Source: Syntrophorhabdus sp.
Lineage (GTDB): Bacteria; Desulfobacterota; BSN033; UBA1163
Direction: 5' to 3'
Assembly (NCBI GenBank): GCA_020724025.1
Contig: DYHU01000003.1
Span: forward strand, 1 to 47,772
Length of the DNA stretch: 47,772 nt
Shown: one piece after another, positions 21,974 through 47,743 of the stretch
Position numbering within the stretch: the stretch's first letter is position 1
Layout of the letters: each line of letters opens with the position of its first letter
Translations under genes and position numbers: made by a program
The notes under the pieces: generated by a model
Told to the model about the DNA's origin: nothing
The model's database searches: none
What the model saw: the letters and a program-made list of their open reading frames with translations, nothing else

Positions 21974-22773
21974 CTAATACGGGTTGAAGCCCTGGGCATG
22001 TGCCCTTATGTAACGAGCCAAATGATAGGAAGCCATGTGCAAATCGCTTTCATTGATCCGGGTAGGCTCGTGTTGAATGAATGAGGGTAAGACTTGAGGG
22101 TTCAGAACCCAGACAGAAGATCCCTTTGGGAAGGGCTCCACGAACCATCCGGGGAACAACACAACGGGCCTGACAGGGAACTCCTTCCCGGTGCTGGCGC
22201 GAAGCATTTCGGCAAGCCATTTTGCGTTGCCCAGGGCTTGGGTGACTGGATTACGTTGAGGCTCAAACCCATTGACCAGAAGCGTTTTCCCGTCAAAGGT
22301 GACGGATGACGATCCCTTTGCAGGTTTGCTGTGCGTTTTGGTTTCCACAACGAAGACGCCTCGACTCGATAGAACGACATGGTCGAGGTTGAAGCCATCA
22401 CCTACTAAATCATGGAAGACAATAGCACCTTCATTTTTTACCACATCGAGTTGCTCGGCGACAGCCCTCTCGCCGTCCCGGCCTAACTTCAGCCGCCGTA
22501 CCTCCTTCGCGGTCTGCCTAAACGCAAATATACAGTACACAATCACAACAATTGCCACAGCAAACAATAGCCACGGATTAGGCTGAGAGTGTGTGAAGAC
22601 TTGTATCCAAGCGCCCATAGCGAGGAGAAAGAAACCGAATGCAAACAGGGTGTAATTAAACTGCTTCTCATTTAAAAGGCGATTAATTTGCTCATCTATA
22701 GATTGCCCCGGAAGCCTCAGGAGAGGCTCCTTTAGGGGCGACTTGGAAGTTGATTTTTGCTCGGCACACTCAT
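21974..22773 (-). pseudogene. NERD-domain protein, N-terminal frameshift
   Basis: The C-terminal 214 residues form an open frame with one membrane helix (WLLFAVAIVVIVYCIFAF) and a NERD nuclease-related domain (GERAVAEQL, DGFNLDHVVLSSRG, VFVVETKTHSKP with the D...E-x-K pattern). The natural start appears to be ATG 22773, preceded by AAAGGAG, giving MSVPSKNQLPSRP. One base missing in the C-run at 22735-22738 (plus-strand GGGG) throws that frame off; restoring it joins to LKEPLLRLPGQ and a second N-terminal helix, for 266 residues. Assembly error is possible. NERD proteins are linked to DNA processing and defence contexts. Confidence 0.7.
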
Positions 22774-39046: not shown

Positions 39047-39508
39047 ATGGGCCAAAAGCTGATCTGTCAGAACAAGAAGGCGAGGTTTCATTATTCGATT
39101 GAAGACTCCCTGGAAGCGGGAATCTGTCTTCTGGGGACCGAGGTGAAATCCCTCCGGGAAGGTAAGGTAAACCTTGGGGACAGTTACGGGACGATCAAAA
39201 ACGGAGAGCTCTTTCTCGTGGATGTCCATATCAGCCCGTATTCCCATGGAAACCGGAACAATCCCGATCCTTTGAGGACGAGGAAGCTTCTCCTTCATAA
39301 ACAGGAGATTCGTCGTCTCATCGGGAAAGTTCAGGAAAAAGGGTTTACCCTCATCCCACTCCGCCTCTACTTTTCGAATGGAAAGGCCAAGGTGGAACTG
39401 GGGCTGGCCAAAGGGAAGAAGCTCTTTGATAAACGGGAGACACTCAAACAAAAGGCAATGCAAAGAGAGATGGAAAGGGGGCGAAAAGGGTTCGACGGGG
39501 ATCGTTGA
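39047..39508 (+). CDS. smpB: SmpB, tmRNA-binding protein
   Basis: A 153-residue small protein B, which delivers tmRNA to stalled ribosomes. Motifs are [48 protein letters not shown] and [32 protein letters not shown] is the basic tail. Its last 10 codons are also the first 32 bases of the tmRNA gene, so the tail RKGFDGDR is encoded by tmRNA sequence. A promoter lies unusually close to the start and no Shine-Dalgarno is obvious. Confidence 0.95.
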
Positions 39509-39831
39509 CGTCAGGGTGGCATACCGAGGTCCCATTGGCTCGTTAAACAAATGGGATTAAACATAATCGCAAACAACTACGATTATGCCCTGGCTGCCTA
39601 AGGGCAGTCAGCGTCCCTCCCATCCCTTCCTGTGGGGTGGAAAGGGATGTCAGAAAGACAGGATAGTTCCTCTCCGACGCTTATAGGATGAGGGGCGAAT
39701 CTCCATAAGCTAATCCTTCCGGAATCCTGCCTGCGGGAGATGGGAAGGGTGAATTTAAAACACAGGCTATGTATGTAGAAGCTCTGCCGGAAGGTTCTCG
39801 GACGCGGGTTCGATTCCCGCCGCCTCCACCA
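39477..39831 (+). ncRNA. ssrA: tmRNA, tag ANNYDYALAA
   Basis: Start GGGGGCG (39477-39483) pairs with CGCCTCC near the 3' end, and the TTCGACGGGG element follows at the spacing found in other tmRNAs. The 3' tRNA-like part (GGACGCGGGTTCGATTCCCGC) ends with encoded ACCA at 39831. The tag frame starts GCA at 39569 and reads A-N-N-Y-D-Y-A-L-A-A, stop 39599-39601. The 5' 32 bases overlap smpB. Confidence 0.95.
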
Positions 39832-40080: not shown

Positions 40081-40326
40081 ATGAAATTTTATTATGTTTA
40101 TATCCTGCAATCCGAGATCGATCAGAAAAGATTCTACACTGGTTTTACAGAAGACCTTGATTCTCGTCTGAAATCACATAACTCTGGGGGATGCGATCAC
40201 ACCTCAAAATATAGACCCTGGAGTATAAAAACTGCAATGGCTTTCAATAACCGGCAGAAAGCCCTCGATTTTGAAAAATACCTAAAAAGCCCCTCCGGCC
40301 GTGCCTTTGCCAAAAAACGACTCTGA
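40081..40326 (+). CDS. Small GIY-YIG nuclease-domain protein
   Basis: An 81-residue single GIY-YIG domain: YYVYILQS (GIY strand), RFYTGFTEDLDSRLKSHN (YIG strand with the Arg helix) and the Glu-containing FEKYLKSPSGRAF. UvrC/Slx1-like small proteins of this sort are common near repeats in metagenomic genomes. Its role is unknown, but a DNA nick or cut by the domain is expected. The repeat unit immediately upstream may be the element it travels with. Confidence 0.85.
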   Translation: MKFYYVYILQSEIDQKRFYTGFTEDLDSRLKSHNSGGCDHTSKYRPWSIKTAMAFNNRQKALDFEKYLKSPSGRAFAKKRL

Positions 40327-40510: not shown

Positions 40511-41128
40511 TCAATACCGAATTACCGATGCCTGGCACCGAGATTTTGATTCGGCCCGATTGCCCTTCCTTAGTTTGTATTCCAACTTCAGAATGTTTTG
40601 GTTAAGAAGTGCCCACTGGACGGTGTCAAAAACTCCTTTAGTAAGTTCTATTTTCTTGGATGCCTTGGCCAGCGGGGTAAACATCTCATCGATCTTCTCC
40701 AACCTTGCTATTTGCTTTGCAGGGAGAGATGATTCGATCTTCTTAAAAGCTGATTCAAGCTCTGCATGGAATGAAGATCCTACTGGAGATACAAGTAACT
40801 TTTTGCTGAAGTAAAGAGCCATTAACTCATTAAGAGTAAATGTTACAGGCGAGACACTCTTAAAAGATGGTTCAAGTTTCCAGTAGGTTGTTCCTTCTAC
40901 AACTTCGGTGAGAAGAGGGTAGCCTGCCTCCTCCAATACCTTAATATCCCGATAAAGAGTTCTCTTCGTGACAGCAAATTCTTCGGCTAATTCGCCTATG
41001 GTGATTCCTTGTCTGGCTCCGAGGGTTCTCAAGATCCCCTGGACTCTGGCAGCTTGGCTGTATTTTTTCTTGGTTGCCATAATTATGGTGAACGGACCAA
41101 TCCTTCCGTATGCGTCCCTCCTGGTCAT
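40511..41128 (-). CDS. HTH/WYL-type regulator, C-terminally truncated at the island direct repeat
   Basis: A 205-residue fragment of a WYL-domain regulator (typically about 320 residues). The N-terminal HTH is clear: ARVQGILRTLGARQGITIGELAEEF and VTKRTLYRDIKVLEEAGYPL. The WYL region begins (VQWALLNQNILKLEY) and then breaks into an unrelated tail exactly over direct repeat 40520-40546. It is therefore probably non-functional or dominant-negative. The start overlaps the upstream gene by ATGA; ATG 41080 (MATKKKYSQ) is an alternative. Confidence 0.75.
   Translation of the reverse strand: MTRRDAYGRIGPFTIIMATKKKYSQAARVQGILRTLGARQGITIGELAEEFAVTKRTLYRDIKVLEEAGYPLLTEVVEGTTYWKLEPSFKSVSPVTFTLNELMALYFSKKLLVSPVGSSFHAELESAFKKIESSLPAKQIARLEKIDEMFTPLAKASKKIELTKGVFDTVQWALLNQNILKLEYKLRKGNRAESKSRCQASVIRY
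40520..40546. repeat. 27-bp direct repeat, left boundary of the Ub-like island
   Basis: A perfect 27-bp match to 46353-46379, beginning AATTACCGATGCCTGG and ending CACCGAGATTT. It lies at the point where the WYL protein loses homology. The bracketed DNA is 5.8 kb. Confidence 0.88.
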
Positions 41129-41634: not shown

Positions 41635-42564
41635 TCAGGGGGCATCCCTTTTATCCACGATTATTAGTTTTGTCCTCGACGGAGGGTGAGCCATTGGATA
41701 TATTAAAACGAAATAGTTAAACATGTTGCAAAAAGTGTCGATTTTACATCTCTTGTCAAATCCTTTTAAGTCGCTTAGGGCAATTTCCCCTTCGTGGACT
41801 ATTTTCAGAGAACCTGACAAAACGGTGTCATAGATGGGATGCCCGGGGTAATAAAATTTCTCCCAATCTATCATCCCGAATTCATCTGTGAATGCTCCCG
41901 ATTGCAAAGGGTACCATAACCGGAGGATGGGCTGGCTATCAATGGTTTGGCCAGTCAACGTTTCAAGTACCAATAAGGCACATGATCTTGTACTGTCCTC
42001 AATGTATTTTCGAAAAGTTGAGTGAAGCGACGTCTCAAATCTTTCTGCCAAATGCATTGCGCTGGGTAAGCCGAGAGGAAGATCCTTTAATTCCTTCGCA
42101 AACCTGTCAATCTGGAATTGGATTAAAGAAGCACCGAGATTAGCCTCGGCTTCAAGTCCTGTGGCAATCCACGGATCGATCGAATAATCGGTATCTAAAT
42201 GAGGATCGAAAAGACCTTCATGCCATGGTAGGACTCTATGAGTCACTTCATGATAGGTTACAAAAATTATTTGAGAGTGGTGGATGTCGGGGTTTACATA
42301 TATTAATTTTTCCCTAAGATCTAAGAGCCCTTTGAATTTTGATAGGGCTCCCTTTAAAATGCTAATTCCTTTGGTCAACCATCGATCTTCATATTTAGAT
42401 AGGTCTATAGCTCCGATCTCTACCAGTTTCGCGGTGGCAACGATGTCCTCCTTGGGGGTGGGCAGCCTATCTTTAACCCCAGCCGCAGATAAGAGACGCT
42501 TGGTCTGCTTCTTGATTTCTTCCGAACTTTCTTGAAGGAGCGGATGCTTGCGCGAAACCTTCAT
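41635..42564 (-). CDS. ImmA/IrrE-type zinc metallopeptidase (CapP-like)
   Basis: A 309-residue gluzincin-like peptidase. The HExxH motif is YHEVTH (His105, Glu106, His109), and EAEANLGAS near 138-144 supplies the third ligand. In phage and CBASS regulation, ImmA and CapP cleave a partner XRE repressor; CapP responds to single-stranded DNA. Here it overlaps the XRE gene by ATGA, so the two are cotranslated, and both are divergent from the Ub-like operon. The C-terminal 150 residues are not recognised and could be a sensor. Confidence 0.85.
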   Translation of the reverse strand: MKVSRKHPLLQESSEEIKKQTKRLLSAAGVKDRLPTPKEDIVATAKLVEIGAIDLSKYEDRWLTKGISILKGALSKFKGLLDLREKLIYVNPDIHHSQIIFVTYHEVTHRVLPWHEGLFDPHLDTDYSIDPWIATGLEAEANLGASLIQFQIDRFAKELKDLPLGLPSAMHLAERFETSLHSTFRKYIEDSTRSCALLVLETLTGQTIDSQPILRLWYPLQSGAFTDEFGMIDWEKFYYPGHPIYDTVLSGSLKIVHEGEIALSDLKGFDKRCKIDTFCNMFNYFVLIYPMAHPPSRTKLIIVDKRDAP

Positions 42565-42908
42565 TTTCTGGCTTTCTTCTTCTGTCGTATAAACTCAAGA
42601 TATTTTAGTAACTCTTCTTCTTCCTCCTCGGTTAGATCTTTGAGCAGACTGAATGCCACCCCCGCTGTTTTTTTTGCTTTAGCTCCCTCTTTAGGCATAA
42701 GATAACCAGCTAACTTAAGTAAATTGGTGTAGGATACCCCATAAAAATTGGCTAATTTGTGCAAAAAATGAGGGGAAGGTTCTTTAATATTTCCCTGCTC
42801 CAGTTGATTCAGATACGCATTGGATACCTTTGTTTCTCTTTCTACGTCCCTTAACGTCAGCCCTTTCAGGTTTCGATACTGTCTCAGTTTATCTCCGAGC
42901 TCTTTGGA
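42561..42908 (-). CDS. XRE-family repressor (CapH-like)
   Basis: A 115-residue protein with an N-terminal HTH (LRQYRNLKGLTLRDVERETK, VSNAYLNQLEQGNI) and a charged C-terminal tail ending in EEEEELLKYLEFIRQKKK. The GTG start at 42908 is favoured by GGGGGTGA upstream; the ATG at 42947 would lie inside the promoter. It is probably the repressor cleaved by the coupled ImmA/IrrE peptidase, controlling both divergent promoters. Confidence 0.85.
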   Translation of the reverse strand, partial: SKELGDKLRQYRNLKGLTLRDVERETKVSNAYLNQLEQGNIKEPSPHFLHKLANFYGVSYTNLLKLAGYLMPKEGAKAKKTAGVAFSLLKDLTEEEEEELLKYLEFIRQKKKARK

Positions 42909-42937
42909 CACATTGGTCACCCCCTTTCCTATCTTAA

Positions 42938-42964
42938 AGTATATCATATTGCATTTTATGTCAA
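42938..42964 (-). promoter_or_regulatory. Promoter of the XRE-ImmA operon
   Basis: Minus-strand TTGACA (42964-42959), 15-bp spacer, TATACT (42943-42938), about 30 bp before the GTG start of the XRE gene. Confidence 0.6.
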
Positions 42965-42970
42965 GCGGTA

Positions 42971-43027
42971 TATTTGCTTCTAATCAAAAATAATGCTTGA
43001 CAAAGAAAGCAAATAATATTATATTTG
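42971..43027. promoter_or_regulatory. Candidate XRE operator overlapping the Ub-operon promoter
   Basis: TATTTGCTT (42971-42979) is inverted as AAGCAAATA (43007-43015), and CAAATA/TATTTG forms a second inverted pair (43010-43015, 43022-43027) across the -10 region. Binding would block the divergent promoter at 42997-43025. Confidence 0.5.
42997..43025 (+). promoter_or_regulatory. Sigma-70 promoter of the Ub-like operon
   Basis: TTGACA (42997-43002), exact 17-bp spacer, TATATT (43020-43025). The 5' leader to the Ubl start is about 135 nt and holds a tiny ORF. Confidence 0.75.
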
Positions 43028-43057
43028 GTGCATATCTTGTTTAGGAGGTAGAGAGAG

Positions 43058-43078
43058 ATGTTAAAGCCATTCCATTAA
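43058..43078 (+). CDS. Six-codon leader ORF (MLKPFH)
   Basis: ATG-TTA-AAG-CCA-TTC-CAT-TAA with AGGAGGT 8 bp upstream. It precedes the Ubl gene by 90 bp. It may be a leader peptide or the stub of a lost gene. Confidence 0.4.
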   Translation: MLKPFH

Positions 43079-43167
43079 TCCTGAGTAGAGGGGCAATATC
43101 GCATCGACTTACAGAGACCCCTTTGATGTCAAAGTGGGTAACGAGATATCATGAAAGGAGTGCAAAG

Positions 43168-43407
43168 ATGAAAGAAGAACAGCAACATGGACCAAAATTT
43201 TTCCTCGACATCGAAGGGGTATTGAAACCGTGGGACAAAGACACGATTACAACCGAGGAAGTGATCACGCTTGGAGGCTGGGACCCTTCGTTGGGAGCCA
43301 TCTTGATCGACAAGGATAACAACGAGCGCAACCTTCAACCGGGTGAAGTAGTAGAACTGAAGCCAGGAATGGGATTCTCCAAAAAGGTGCGATTCAGGCG
43401 GGGGTAA
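43168..43407 (+). CDS. Ubiquitin-like protein (multiubiquitin-domain family, single domain)
   Basis: A 79-residue beta-grasp protein. The start at 43168 follows AAAGGAG at 7 bp. The core (FFLDIEGVLKPWDKDTITTEE, LIDKDNNERNLQPGEVVELK) resembles the Multiubiquitin domain (PF14452-like) of predicted bacterial ubiquitin-like modifiers, here as one domain. It ends VRFRRG, leaving a single terminal Gly with no extra residues, so no processing would be needed for activation. Adjacent E1-, E2- and JAMM-like genes argue that it is the modifier. Confidence 0.78.
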   Translation: MKEEQQHGPKFFLDIEGVLKPWDKDTITTEEVITLGGWDPSLGAILIDKDNNERNLQPGEVVELKPGMGFSKKVRFRRG

Positions 43408-43411
43408 GATT

Positions 43412-43807
43412 ATGGAAGAGCGGATCGAAAAGGAATTGGCGCTTCTCCGGCAAAGATATGGTGTTTTGGAATGCAAGGAGGAGGGCCGATGGGTTCGTAT
43501 TCCGTCCTATCCCCTGCCGGAGGGATGGAACCGGTCTTCAACAGAGGTGGTTTTTCAGATACCGGTTGGCTTTCCAGGTACGCCGCCTTATGGGATTTAT
43601 ACACCCGCCGGGCTCTTATTTAACAAGGAACGGCCAAATAATTATACGGAACCCGCTTCTACCCAGCCGCCTTTCCCGGGTACTTGGGGCATCTTCTCCT
43701 GGATGCCCCAGGATGGACAATGGCGACCAACCGCCGATGCAGTAAGCGGGTCCAACCTCTTAAACTGGGTAATGGGGTTTGCAGACCGGTTTCGGGAGGG
43801 AAGATGA
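43412..43807 (+). CDS. E2/UBC-like protein (Prok-E2 family E type), no catalytic cysteine seen
   Basis: A 131-residue E2-fold protein. The characteristic stretch is VVFQIPVGFPGTPPYGIYTP, then GTWGIFSWMPQDGQWRPTADA. It resembles prokaryotic E2 family E, which sits next to multiubiquitin genes. The only cysteine is Cys21 near the N-terminus; none occurs where a canonical E2 thioester Cys would be. So it may be a UEV-like scaffold, or another residue acts. It begins 4 bp after the Ubl stop. Confidence 0.78.
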   Translation: MEERIEKELALLRQRYGVLECKEEGRWVRIPSYPLPEGWNRSSTEVVFQIPVGFPGTPPYGIYTPAGLLFNKERPNNYTEPASTQPPFPGTWGIFSWMPQDGQWRPTADAVSGSNLLNWVMGFADRFREGR

Positions 43808-44331
43808 TAAGTCAAATCTTGCTAAAAATTCCTAAGACCATACAGACGAATATTTGGGCACATCTCTTGCCAAAACGTTTCGCTGTTGAAGAAGCTGCTT
43901 TTTTATTTGTACGCCGAGAATCCGAGGATAAGGCCGAATTCTTCTCATATGTCGACTGGATCCCTGTACCGCCGAAGGGATTCCTTTCTCGTTCTGCTTT
44001 CCATTTCGAGCTGACTGATGAGATAAGGGCAGTGGTGATAAAACGCGCTCATGACCTTGGGACATCACTGGTTGAATTCCATTCCCATAAAGGGCGTCGA
44101 CCAGCGGAGTTTTCCGCAAGTGACCTCTTAGGGTTTCGAGAGTTCGTGCCTCATGTTTGGTGGCGGCTTAAGGGACGCCCTTACGCTGCAGTGGTCTTGT
44201 CACGTTCTGGTTTTGATGGTCTTGTTTGGAGTACGGGCCCTGATACTCCCCGACGTCTTAATGGTGTTGTTGTTGGGAAATCAGTGCTTACACCGACGAG
44301 GCTTACTTCACTACACGGATGGCTACTATGA
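43804..44331 (+). CDS. JAB/JAMM metallopeptidase (deubiquitinase-like)
   Basis: A 175-residue JAMM domain. Zinc-site residues are visible: a catalytic Glu at 29/30 (VEEAAFLF), His93 and His95 (VEFHSH) and Ser104/Asp107 (FSASD), in the H-x-H-x8-S-x2-D order. It would remove the Ubl from targets or trim precursors. The start overlaps the E2 stop (ATGA) and the end overlaps E1, so translation is coupled throughout. An in-frame longer reading to 43684 only runs through the E2 gene. Confidence 0.87.
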   Translation: MISQILLKIPKTIQTNIWAHLLPKRFAVEEAAFLFVRRESEDKAEFFSYVDWIPVPPKGFLSRSAFHFELTDEIRAVVIKRAHDLGTSLVEFHSHKGRRPAEFSASDLLGFREFVPHVWWRLKGRPYAAVVLSRSGFDGLVWSTGPDTPRRLNGVVVGKSVLTPTRLTSLHGWLL

Positions 44332-45194
44332 CAAACGAACGATTTGATCGTAATATTCGATTTTTCGGCAAAGAAGGGCAAGACCGACTCGCGACTTTAC
44401 ATGTCGCTGTGGTCGGGATTGGAGGCTTAGGGACCCACGTGGTTCAGCAATTGGCATTGCTTGGGATGGAACATTTAACGCTCATAGATAAGCAGGAACT
44501 CGATGCCACTAATTTAAATCGATATGTAGGGGCTCGTCATGATGATCCTATCCCCGGAACGCCGAAAGTAAACATCGGTGAACGTATCGTGAAGGCTATC
44601 AATCCGCACATCCTTGTGGATCGAATTCCACTTTCTTTGATAAGCAAAGAGGCATTTGAAGCAATTATTAAGGCTGATTACGTCTTTGGCTGCCTTGATC
44701 AAGAGGGCCTACGATTGATTTTGAACGAACTCTGTTCCGCTTATTCCAGGCCTTATTTCGATCTGGCCTCTGAAATTCTGCCAGGTAATCCTCCAGGTTA
44801 TGGTGGCCGGGTATGCGTAGCATGGAATGGCCAAGGCTGCATCGTCTGTTACGACGAGATCGATGTTTCGGAAGCCCAGGTTGAACTACTGAGTCCAGAA
44901 GCCAGACGGGACCAGAGGGCTATTTACGGCATTAGAAGGGAGGACTTGGATCGAGTGGGCCCTTCCGTCGTTTCAATTAACGGCGTGGTGGCATCCTTGG
45001 CGGTCACGGAGTTCATGCTTGGCATTACGGGAATTCGACCACCCAAAAAACTTTTGACCTACCGCGGCCAGATGGGGGTTGTTACGGTCAAAAGTGAAGA
45101 ACCTGCTCCAGATTGTTACTACTGTAAGGGAATTCGGGGAAAAGGTGACGCCGCAGACGTCTGGAGGTATATTAGAGAGGGGATGATTTTGTAA
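44328..45194 (+). CDS. E1-like ThiF/MoeB-family adenylyltransferase
   Basis: A 288-residue Rossmann-fold E1. The nucleotide loop is VAVVGIGGLGTHV with the following acidic LIDKQELDATNLNRY, including the Arg finger. Two CxxC pairs (CIVC near 175 and CYYC near 270) probably bind structural zinc. It should adenylate the Ubl C-terminus, and no E1-to-E2 transfer cysteine can be assigned confidently. The start is taken at the ATGA overlap (44328); ATG 44319 adds three residues. Confidence 0.87.
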   Translation: MTNERFDRNIRFFGKEGQDRLATLHVAVVGIGGLGTHVVQQLALLGMEHLTLIDKQELDATNLNRYVGARHDDPIPGTPKVNIGERIVKAINPHILVDRIPLSLISKEAFEAIIKADYVFGCLDQEGLRLILNELCSAYSRPYFDLASEILPGNPPGYGGRVCVAWNGQGCIVCYDEIDVSEAQVELLSPEARRDQRAIYGIRREDLDRVGPSVVSINGVVASLAVTEFMLGITGIRPPKKLLTYRGQMGVVTVKSEEPAPDCYYCKGIRGKGDAADVWRYIREGMIL

Positions 45195-45233
45195 AATCAA
45201 GAAAGTCAAATAATTCAAAGGAGGGGTTAAACC

Positions 45234-45527
45234 ATGGCAAAACGAAATGAAAAAAATCAAACAAAACACGATCACAAGGTTCACGAGCGAGCCAAAAGCC
45301 TTCGAGAGCAGGGCTTTAACGTTCGGGCGGATATTCCAGGGTTTAAGAAGCCACATTCAATTCAGGGATACCGTCCTGACGTAGAAGCGAGAAAATATGG
45401 AAAAGTTAGGATCATTGAGGAGATCGAGACAAAAGACAGCTTAGAAAAAGATCACTCACAACAAAAAGCCTTTGAGCAGTATGCAGACAGGAAAAATGTC
45501 AAATTTGTCATTCGCCTGACTAAATGA
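45234..45527 (+). CDS. Small PD-(D/E)XK nuclease-like protein, last gene of the Ub-like operon
   Basis: A 97-residue protein 39 bp after E1 with AAAGGAGGGG upstream, so it appears operonic. The pattern is GYRPDVEARKYG, then RIIEEIETKDS: Pro48-Asp49, then Glu65-x-Lys67, a compact PD-(D/E)XK nuclease core without other domains. It might be the effector of the module or a helper nuclease. I do not know a named Ub-like system with exactly this partner. Confidence 0.6.
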   Translation: MAKRNEKNQTKHDHKVHERAKSLREQGFNVRADIPGFKKPHSIQGYRPDVEARKYGKVRIIEEIETKDSLEKDHSQQKAFEQYADRKNVKFVIRLTK

Positions 45528-45770
45528 GACTAAAGGATGATAACTGACCCCAAAGACGGACGAAGTGCAAAAGGTTAGGAAACTCCGTCCTTCTCAATGC
45601 CGCATTTGATACGAACGAACAGAGCAGGCCCTGAAAAACGTTTGGCTGATGGTAGAAGCGATAATCTAAGGGTTGCTATCGACAAATTGCTCTGAACTCG
45701 CTACGATTTTTGGAGAAGAAACAAAAAGGTGCAATTTAAGCACTCTCCTGCAAAACCTGAATTGGTTGAC
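45528..45770. other. Gene-free stretch
   Basis: No gene, RNA or repeat recognised between the nuclease gene and the pseudogene. Confidence 0.5.
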
Positions 45771-46339
45771 TTACCAGAAGCTCATCTGTTTTCTCTCCGT
45801 TCGGATGCGGTCTGCCTCCCTGATCTTGTAATCCAGGTAGAGAATCAGGTCCTGGACGAATCTCTTTTCTGCCTCGGTTCTGAAGGTTGCCCTCGTGGTC
45901 TCCAAAATCCTTCTGAGCTGCTTCCATGTTAGCCAGCCGATTCCCTTTGAGAGCAACCTGCCGGTGTCCACAGGGGGCTTAAATAGGCCTGGGCCAGTTA
46001 GCCCTTCATGAGGTTCTGATCATGTCGATAACGGGTCAGAATCCAGGGTAGTTTCTCGGTGTCTATGATTAGGACAAAATAGAACTCTTTGACACTGTCT
46101 GGGTGGTTAAGATAGTGGTATGCAGCCAGATCGAGGTATCGGATGATTTGATCTCTTCGTGGGTCGCTTGTCGTGCTCAAGTTCACTGGGGCAAGATATT
46201 TGGCCTCAATGAATATGATCCCGTCTTTATAAGAGATGGTGACGTCTACCTCGGAGATGCCCTCTCTGTACTTTCTGTTGGCCGGGGGGCGATATCGCTT
46301 CCAGAACTCGAGGGAGAGGTTCTCAAAGGGGGTATCCCT
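45771..46339 (-). pseudogene. PD-(D/E)XK nuclease remnant, 5'-truncated and frameshifted
   Basis: The frame opens just after a TGA at 46340-46342, inside the right island boundary. It encodes SEVDVTISYKDGIIFIEAKY with the D...E-x-K nuclease pattern, then YLDLAAYHYLNHPDSV. The frame stops at 45998. One missing base in the GGG run at 46002-46004 (plus CCC) would join it to LTGPGLFKPPVDTGR and on through RFVQDLILYLDYKI to the stop at 45771. The N-terminus is absent. It was probably broken by the arrival of the island. Confidence 0.65.
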
Positions 46340-46352
46340 TCAGGCTACTGAC

Positions 46353-46379
46353 AATTACCGATGCCTGGCACCGAGATTT
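46353..46379. repeat. 27-bp direct repeat, right boundary of the Ub-like island
   Basis: Identical to 40520-40546. It lies immediately upstream (minus-strand sense) of the truncated nuclease remnant. The 46380-46507 stretch beyond it holds no gene I can support. Confidence 0.88.
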
Positions 46380-46507: not shown

Positions 46508-46735
46508 TCAATTGGGATGTCTTTCGGCAACTTTCTGTTTATGGACCTTGGTCTTTCCAACCGGAACCGATGTTGGCTCAACCAAGCGTTTCCTCAGACT
46601 TTGCCAAAACGGATCCTTTTCAAGAAGCTTCCGGGTTTTTTCATGTTTCTCTTCCCAGGAAAGTCCCTGGTCCTCCTTGTCAATTTCTTCCCTCCGCTTT
46701 CGCATCCAAGCTACCGCATCAAACGTCTTTTTCAC
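46508..46735 (-). CDS. Small antitoxin-like protein
   Basis: A 75-residue, highly charged protein (VKKTFDAVAWMRKRREEIDK, KLLEKDPFWQSLRKR). The GTG start at 46735 has AAGGAGGT upstream. It overlaps the 3' end of the PIN gene by 17 bp. This short type commonly neighbours PIN toxins, so it is a plausible antitoxin, though the toxin comes first in the operon. Family function inferred. Confidence 0.6.
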   Translation of the reverse strand: MKKTFDAVAWMRKRREEIDKEDQGLSWEEKHEKTRKLLEKDPFWQSLRKRLVEPTSVPVGKTKVHKQKVAERHPN

Positions 46736-47199
46736 CGGATAACACCTCCTTCGGAGTACGAATCTCAATCAAACCATAGCCCTGTTCTAAATTTACAGCA
46801 TTGAACATTCGAATTCTACCAAGGTTGACAATATGCCTGAAATTCCAACTTACGAGAACATCAACACGGCCAATTGTTGCCAAGGCCACATGAAGAGCAT
46901 CTGATCGACTGCCCGGACCTACAATACCGTGGGATAGATACGCCTCTGCAAGCACCCCCGCTTCAGGCGTATCCGAAAGGATGATCTGATGGGCCTCAGG
47001 TATTTCAAGGATACGATTCCGGACACTTTGAGGAGCTCCTTGAAGCTCCCGCAATGTATGCTCCGAGAGAACCATAGAGAACCATTATGTAGACTCCCTG
47101 GATGAACAGTTGCCACAAAGCAAGGGTCGCTTCGGCAAATTCGCTATCTTCGCAACCTCCAATTACGGAAGCATCAATATAAACATAAAATCTCTTCAT
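46719..47199 (-). pseudogene. PIN-domain toxin, inactivated by a 10-bp tandem duplication
   Basis: The N-terminal part MKRFYVYIDASVIGGCEDSE (catalytic Asp) through FIQGVYIMVL is in one frame and LSEHTLRELQGAPQSV through SDALHVALA and DVLVSWNFRHIVN in another. A direct repeat of AGAGAACCAT twice (47066-47085, plus strand) causes the shift. Removing one unit restores a 156-residue PIN ribonuclease. This reads as a VapC-type toxin switched off while its likely antitoxin remains intact. Confidence 0.75.
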
Positions 47200-47691: not shown

Positions 47692-47743
47692 GAGTACTTG
47701 GGGTCAGACCTGATTATGAGTACTTGGGGTCAGACCTGATTAT
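47692..47743. repeat. 26-bp tandem duplication
   Basis: A unit beginning GAGTACTTGGGGTCAG and ending ACCTGATTAT occurs twice in a row (47692-47717, 47718-47743). Similar phrases are familiar to me next to REP-associated tyrosine transposases, but none is within the window. Confidence 0.75.

What the first reader, a model, noticed from the sequence alone, without database searches (positions are those of the whole stretch)
43168..45527. Five-gene ubiquitin-like cassette ending in a small PD-(D/E)XK nuclease
Ubl, E2-like, JAMM peptidase, E1-like and a 97-residue PD-(D/E)XK protein follow in one direction, most with ATGA overlaps. Ubl-E2-E1-JAB operons (Bil and related groups) are known antiphage or predicted modification systems. 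The appended single-domain nuclease is the unusual part. It might be an effector released or tethered by Ubl conjugation. That mechanism is inference; the gene order and catalytic motifs are seen.
Basis: partly seen in the sequence, partly recalled or inferred. Interest (0 to 1): 0.95.

Follow-up and report, generated by a model that had tools for sequence, protein, structure and literature searches.

The report
Bacterial ubiquitin-like operon plus small nuclease
This is a bacterial relative of the ubiquitin tagging machinery, probably switched on by DNA damage, followed by a small predicted DNA-cutting enzyme that the related operons examined lack; the tagging part is a known kind and the added enzyme is a testable hint of what it may act on.

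The parts
39477..39831 (+). tmRNA (ssrA) gene upstream; such genes are frequent island insertion sites (recalled)
   Evidence: ARAGORN
40520..40546 (+). left copy of a perfect 27-nt direct repeat bracketing the 5.8-kb block with the operon
   Evidence: 2 copies in window; 0 expected
41635..42564 (-). CapP-like peptidase (309 aa, HEVTH motif)
   Evidence: PADLOC capP 3.8e-12; motif read in sequence; no Pfam M78 match; no PDB match at E 0.1
42561..42947 (-). CapH-like XRE HTH repressor (128 aa)
   Evidence: PADLOC capH 2.1e-12; Pfam HTH_3 4.4e-13
42949..43012 (.). dyad (31-nt arms, 24 of 31 complementary) overlapping the -35 box: putative CapH operator
   Evidence: 0 of 300 dinucleotide shuffles of 42948-43167 reach 24 (mean 16.4, max 20). 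The arm length of 31 was taken, so the test is partly post hoc
42997..43025 (+). putative Bub promoter TTGACA-17-TATATT (11 of 12)
   Evidence: 6 promoter-like sites in 42900-45900, 3.2 expected
43168..43407 (+). BubA-like Ubl, 79 aa, ends ...KVRFRRG
   Evidence: PF14452 7.1e-5; RG end also in L002, L025, L026; L027 has two more residues
43412..43807 (+). BubB-like E2, 131 aa, no conserved Cys, invariant Ser96
43804..44331 (+). JAB/JAMM peptidase, 175 aa (Glu, HSH, SxxD residues kept)
   Evidence: PF14464 3.3e-4; alignment of window and 8 loci
44328..45194 (+). E1 (ThiF type), 288 aa, four invariant Zn-type Cys
   Evidence: ThiF 5.4e-38; BubCD 2.6e-15 but MoeB 1e-15; Cys conservation
45195..45233 (+). 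39-nt gap with ribosome-binding site GGAGGGG at 45220-45226
   Evidence: homologous junction inferred in P0002
45234..45527 (+). small PD-(D/E)XK-like nuclease, 97 aa; D13, D49, E63, E65 invariant
46353..46379 (+). right copy of the 27-nt direct repeat

Best explanation
A CapH/CapP-type, DNA-damage-controlled Bub conjugation operon with an accessory nuclease gene added at its 3' end. Inferred working: the CapH-like repressor holds the operon off at the dyad; DNA damage or phage replication intermediates activate the CapP-like peptidase, which cleaves CapH; the E1 adenylates the Ubl C-terminal Gly; the E2 passes Ubl to targets through a non-cysteine route in which Ser96 is the candidate nucleophile; the JAMM peptidase removes Ubl. 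The nuclease is translated from the same message with its own ribosome-binding site and cuts DNA (Holliday-resolvase-like fold), most likely as an independent DNA-damage or defence activity induced together with Bub. Shown here: genes, families, model fold, conserved residues, dyad, co-orientation. Inferred: co-transcription, every biochemical step and the antiphage role.
Against: The same paper says Bub operons have not been shown to protect against phage. Window CapP matches PADLOC only weakly (3.8e-12), with no Pfam M78 match and no PDB match. The nuclease was found in 0 of 27 other Bub-type loci. The E1 matches MoeB (1e-15) as well as BubCD (2.6e-15), so the E1 alone does not decide; PADLOC places it only in the E1 part of its E1-E2 models (best 2.1e-13) and names nothing for Ubl, E2, JAB or nuclease. 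The Lys of PD-(D/E)XK is replaced by Glu, so activity is not assured.
Confidence: 0.6

Rival explanations
1. The nuclease is a passenger: an unrelated small gene that landed behind the Bub operon in an island next to tmRNA and has no functional link to it.
For: Found in 0 of 27 other Bub-type loci; 39-nt gap and own ribosome-binding site; a 43% identical relative in L051 is not beside Bub genes, nor are the weaker ones in L052 and L053, within the 5-12.5 kb fetched; block bracketed by 27-nt repeats and near tmRNA. No nuclease hit shared a contig length with a listed E1 or E2 hit.
Against: The junction probably persists in P0002, whose nuclease is 81% identical, so the pair has been kept together for some time; same strand, and the simple scan saw no terminator between them.
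Confidence: 0.4
2. The nuclease is the effector of this Bub variant: conjugation of Ubl to it, or removal by the JAMM peptidase, turns it on or off.
For: Only position and co-orientation and the inferred shared junction. Ubl-like conjugation of a CBASS enzyme is a precedent (recalled; PMC10097602 and PMC11153139 seen only in search listings).
Against: No direct evidence; the core occurs without the nuclease in 27 of 27 other loci examined.
Confidence: 0.12
3. The whole unit is a stress-response modifier, not an antiphage system.
For: [quoted passage not shown]
Against: Location near tmRNA beside a probably truncated WYL regulator; Bub relatives on plasmids.
Confidence: 0.35

Closest known systems
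Bub (bacterial ubiquitination-like) operons, e.g. Citrobacter BubB and BubCD
   Same: Ubl, BubB-type E2 without conserved Cys, JAB and ThiF-type E1 in the same order; CapW or CapH+CapP lies beside 219 of 544 Bub operons
   Different: JAB and E1 are separate genes instead of a fused BubCD (the E1 part is at 183-402 of that chain); one Ubl domain; extra small nuclease after E1; no DUF6527-like gene seen
Bil antiphage operons
   Same: Ubl, E2, DUB and E1 functions in one operon (recalled)
   Different: The E2 matches BubB and no Bil-named chain appeared among the PDB matches listed; not tested directly against Bil profiles
CapH+CapP controllers of CBASS and other immune operons
   Same: Divergent HTH repressor and HExxH peptidase, operator-like dyad in the shared promoter region
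   Different: Peptidase is diverged (PADLOC 3.8e-12; no M78 Pfam match)
AHJR-like / Hjc / VRR-NUC small PD-(D/E)XK nucleases
   Different: ExE replaces ExK; the window protein is below the PF18743 cut-off (15.9 against 26.1 bits)

Membership tests
Bub | Multi_ubiq-type Ubl ending in Gly | tested here: met
   PF14452 7.1e-5, 1.1 bits under its cut-off, no PDB match; ends RRG
Bub | BubB-type E2 | tested here: met
Bub | E2 lacks the canonical Cys; conserved Ser near that place (this as a Bub trait is recalled) | tested here: met
   Invariant Ser96 in 19 of 19, aligned with a Ser of BubB; chemistry not tested
Bub | JAMM peptidase with intact residues | tested here: met
   Glu, HSH and SxxD positions kept in 9 of 9 JABs, window included; L004 and L007 are near-identical
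Bub | BubD-type E1 | tested here: inconclusive
   BubCD 2.6e-15 but MoeB 1e-15
Bub | Conjugates Ubl to protein targets | not testable with these tools
   needs biochemistry
Bil | Bil-type E2 and E1 | tested here: inconclusive
   No Bil-named row seen in the PADLOC or PDB answers; whether those libraries hold Bil was not checked, and one search showed 25 of 30 E1 rows
CapH/CapP | HTH repressor and HExxH peptidase next to an immune-type operon | tested here: met
   PADLOC capH 2.1e-12 and capP 3.8e-12; HEVTH seen
CapH/CapP | ssDNA-activated cleavage of the repressor | not testable with these tools
   needs biochemistry
PD-(D/E)XK superfamily | Helix-strand-strand-strand-helix-strand core | tested here: met
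PD-(D/E)XK superfamily | Asp, then Glu-x-Lys | tested here: not met
   D49, E63 and E65 invariant in 10 of 10; the Lys position is E65; K67 is not conserved. BamHI-like ExE is a recalled precedent
AHJR-like PF18743 | Score above the Pfam cut-off | tested here: not met
   15.9 against 26.1 bits

The most novel reading that the evidence does not exclude
In this lineage the Bub pathway has acquired its own dedicated DNA nuclease whose activity or location is set by Ubl conjugation and reversed by the JAMM peptidase, a ubiquitin-like switch on a DNA-cutting immune effector under DNA-damage control.
Probability: 0.1. Interest if true: 0.85.

Novelty: new variant of a known kind. Interest (0 to 1): 0.42.

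Why it matters
As far as the passages read say, Bub pathways have not been shown to protect against phage (PMC13373217), and I know of no established physiological target (recalled). A Bub operon with a linked predicted nuclease and a DNA-damage-type regulator gives one concrete candidate substrate or partner to test. If the nuclease is only a passenger, the locus is still a compact four-gene Bub with a readable operator.

Tried and rejected
Bil membership: not supported; the E2 profile and model go to BubB. Nuclease as a core Bub gene: rejected, found in 0 of 27 loci: 19 genome loci (L001-L007, L024-L035; no hit at E<=1) and 8 plasmid loci (L040-L047; best E 0.2; 8 of the 46 plasmid records with an E1 match). 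These 27 are not all independent: L004 and L007 are near-identical, L029 and L030 are close relatives, L007 lacks the Ubl and part of the E2 at a contig edge, L043 showed only the E1, and L028-L035 and most plasmid loci are remote (E1 26-35% identical, L040 41%). Duplicate loci L008, L011, L017 and L020 and the 1.5-kb versions of loci later refetched were not counted.

Viral contigs: nothing confirmed for nuclease or E2, but each scan used two short peptide patterns. The genome-contig scan for the E2, also on two patterns, gave 7 loci. Nuclease in plasmids and phages: no match. Nuclease profile in sampled genomes: 1 of 251, 1 of 249, 2 of 169, 1 of 169, and 0 of 7 Bub genomes; these relatives are remote apart from G102. 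L051-L053 hold no convincing Bub gene by tblastn; L038 and L039 were only listed as ORFs. E2 profile in sampled genomes: 3 of 247, 5 of 251, 4 of 246, 4 of 398, seed genomes included. Matching contig lengths between nuclease and E1 or E2 hits to prove linkage: no length shared in what was listed (the best 120 of 398 E2 and of 1525 E1 hits). E1 catalytic cysteine: C122, C136 and C163 are well conserved (120, 114 and 117 of 120), but I could not assign a role. PADLOC and NCBIfam gave no family for Ubl, E2 or JAB. Papers on Bub mechanism and Bub Ubls (PMC12885553, PMC12145246, PMC11476048) are not held; I know them only from reference lists and recall. The serine/oxyester chemistry of Bub is recalled, from no call. 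A search for Bub-operon terms found 2 papers, both seen as passages; I saw no mention of a nuclease linked to Bub in those passages or in the titles and abstract beginnings, which is far from a full check.

Full report
What is there. On the + strand, 43168-45194 encodes a 79-aa Ubl, a 131-aa E2-like protein, a 175-aa JAB protein and a 288-aa ThiF-type E1, followed by a 97-aa protein at 45234-45527. Overlaps of the ATGA type occur at E2/JAB and JAB/E1 only; the last gene starts 39 nt after E1 with its own GGAGGGG site. Pfam supports the four core families, three of them below the curated cut-offs, and the fifth protein only weakly.

Regulation. Divergently upstream lie a CapH-like HTH protein and a CapP-like peptidase with HEVTH. 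The shared promoter region holds a dyad with 31-nt arms (24 of 31 complementary) over a good -35/-10 pair; none of 300 dinucleotide shuffles reached that score, the arm length having been taken from the observed dyad. CapP-like peptidases also lie upstream in L005, L026 and L027 (PADLOC 2.3e-46 to 4.4e-43), divergent in L005 and L027 but on the operon's strand in L026. PMC13373217 (passages only) reports CapW or CapH+CapP beside 219 of 544 Bub operons and that both respond to DNA damage. The window therefore fits an established regulatory pattern.

Is it linked to Bub? For: the 32-residue N-terminal extension of P0002 matches window DNA at the end of the E1 gene and the gap before the nuclease, read in another frame, with a score of 100. 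The next best places are the same junction in the neighbouring frame (47) and an unrelated spot at 22113-22160 on the minus strand (46); 20 shuffles of the extension gave best scores of 32-52. The same extension, converted to the E1 frame, allows the E1 C-terminus of P0132 and P0133 at 19 of 19 positions, stop included, against 17 of 19 for the window, P0134 and P0137 and 15-16 for further relatives, so this second test discriminates only modestly. A second lineage therefore probably has the same E1-nuclease junction; its DNA was not seen. Against: the nuclease was found in 0 of 27 other Bub-type loci (19 genome loci; 8 plasmid loci). In the wider Bub group other genes follow E1: DUF6527 is annotated there in 3 of 8 plasmid loci (L041, L042, L047), in L041 behind a phosphotransferase. 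The 3' end of Bub operons may thus be a variable accessory slot (inference).

Setting. The window is a bacterial chromosome by its genes (MutS-like, DnaG, sigma-70, tRNAs, tmRNA). The operon lies 3.3 kb beyond tmRNA, inside a 5.8-kb block bracketed by a perfect 27-nt repeat; whether this is an insertion is unproven, as no empty site was seen and the tmRNA end is not repeated in the window.

Verdict. The finding is real but mostly a member of a recently described kind. What remains unusual is the nuclease, seen in one locus and inferred in another. I rate the nuclease-as-effector reading at about one in ten.

Noticed in passing
L005 3593-5499 and L026 6775-8625; by eye L029, L030: In some Bub loci the upstream CapP-like peptidase stands with a sigma-70 region 2-like protein (Pfam 1.6e-9 in L005; L026, L029 and L030 by eye only) rather than an HTH repressor, perhaps a different regulatory pairing.
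   Followed up: partly
L006 7741-11017: A Bub locus is followed by a 99-aa protein without Pfam match, TnsA (Pfam 5.6e-16) and a 717-aa gene in TnsB position (recalled order): possibly Tn7-like cargo.
   Followed up: partly
window 40511-41128 (-): WYL/HTH regulator (PADLOC 6.1e-22) matched only over profile positions 2-151 of 229, ending beside the left 27-nt repeat: probably truncated.
   Followed up: partly
window about 46000-46350 (-): Broken reading frames with an EAKY motif resembling a restriction-endonuclease-like protein (by eye), ending at the right 27-nt repeat.
   Followed up: no
window 46508-47199 (-): PIN-domain-like toxin (by eye) split over two frames next to a possible antitoxin gene; the larger piece has no Pfam match.
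   Followed up: no
window 40081-40326 (+): GIY-YIG protein (Pfam 9.2e-14) between tmRNA and the operon.
   Followed up: no
window 47692-47743: Tandem 26-nt repeat GAGTACTTGGGGTCAGACCTGATTAT, resembling mobile-element or REP ends (recalled).
   Followed up: no
L051 5993-6280 (-): A 95-aa nuclease relative (43% identical) directly after a 947-aa gene that looks like a class II ribonucleotide reductase (recalled, not searched).
   Followed up: partly
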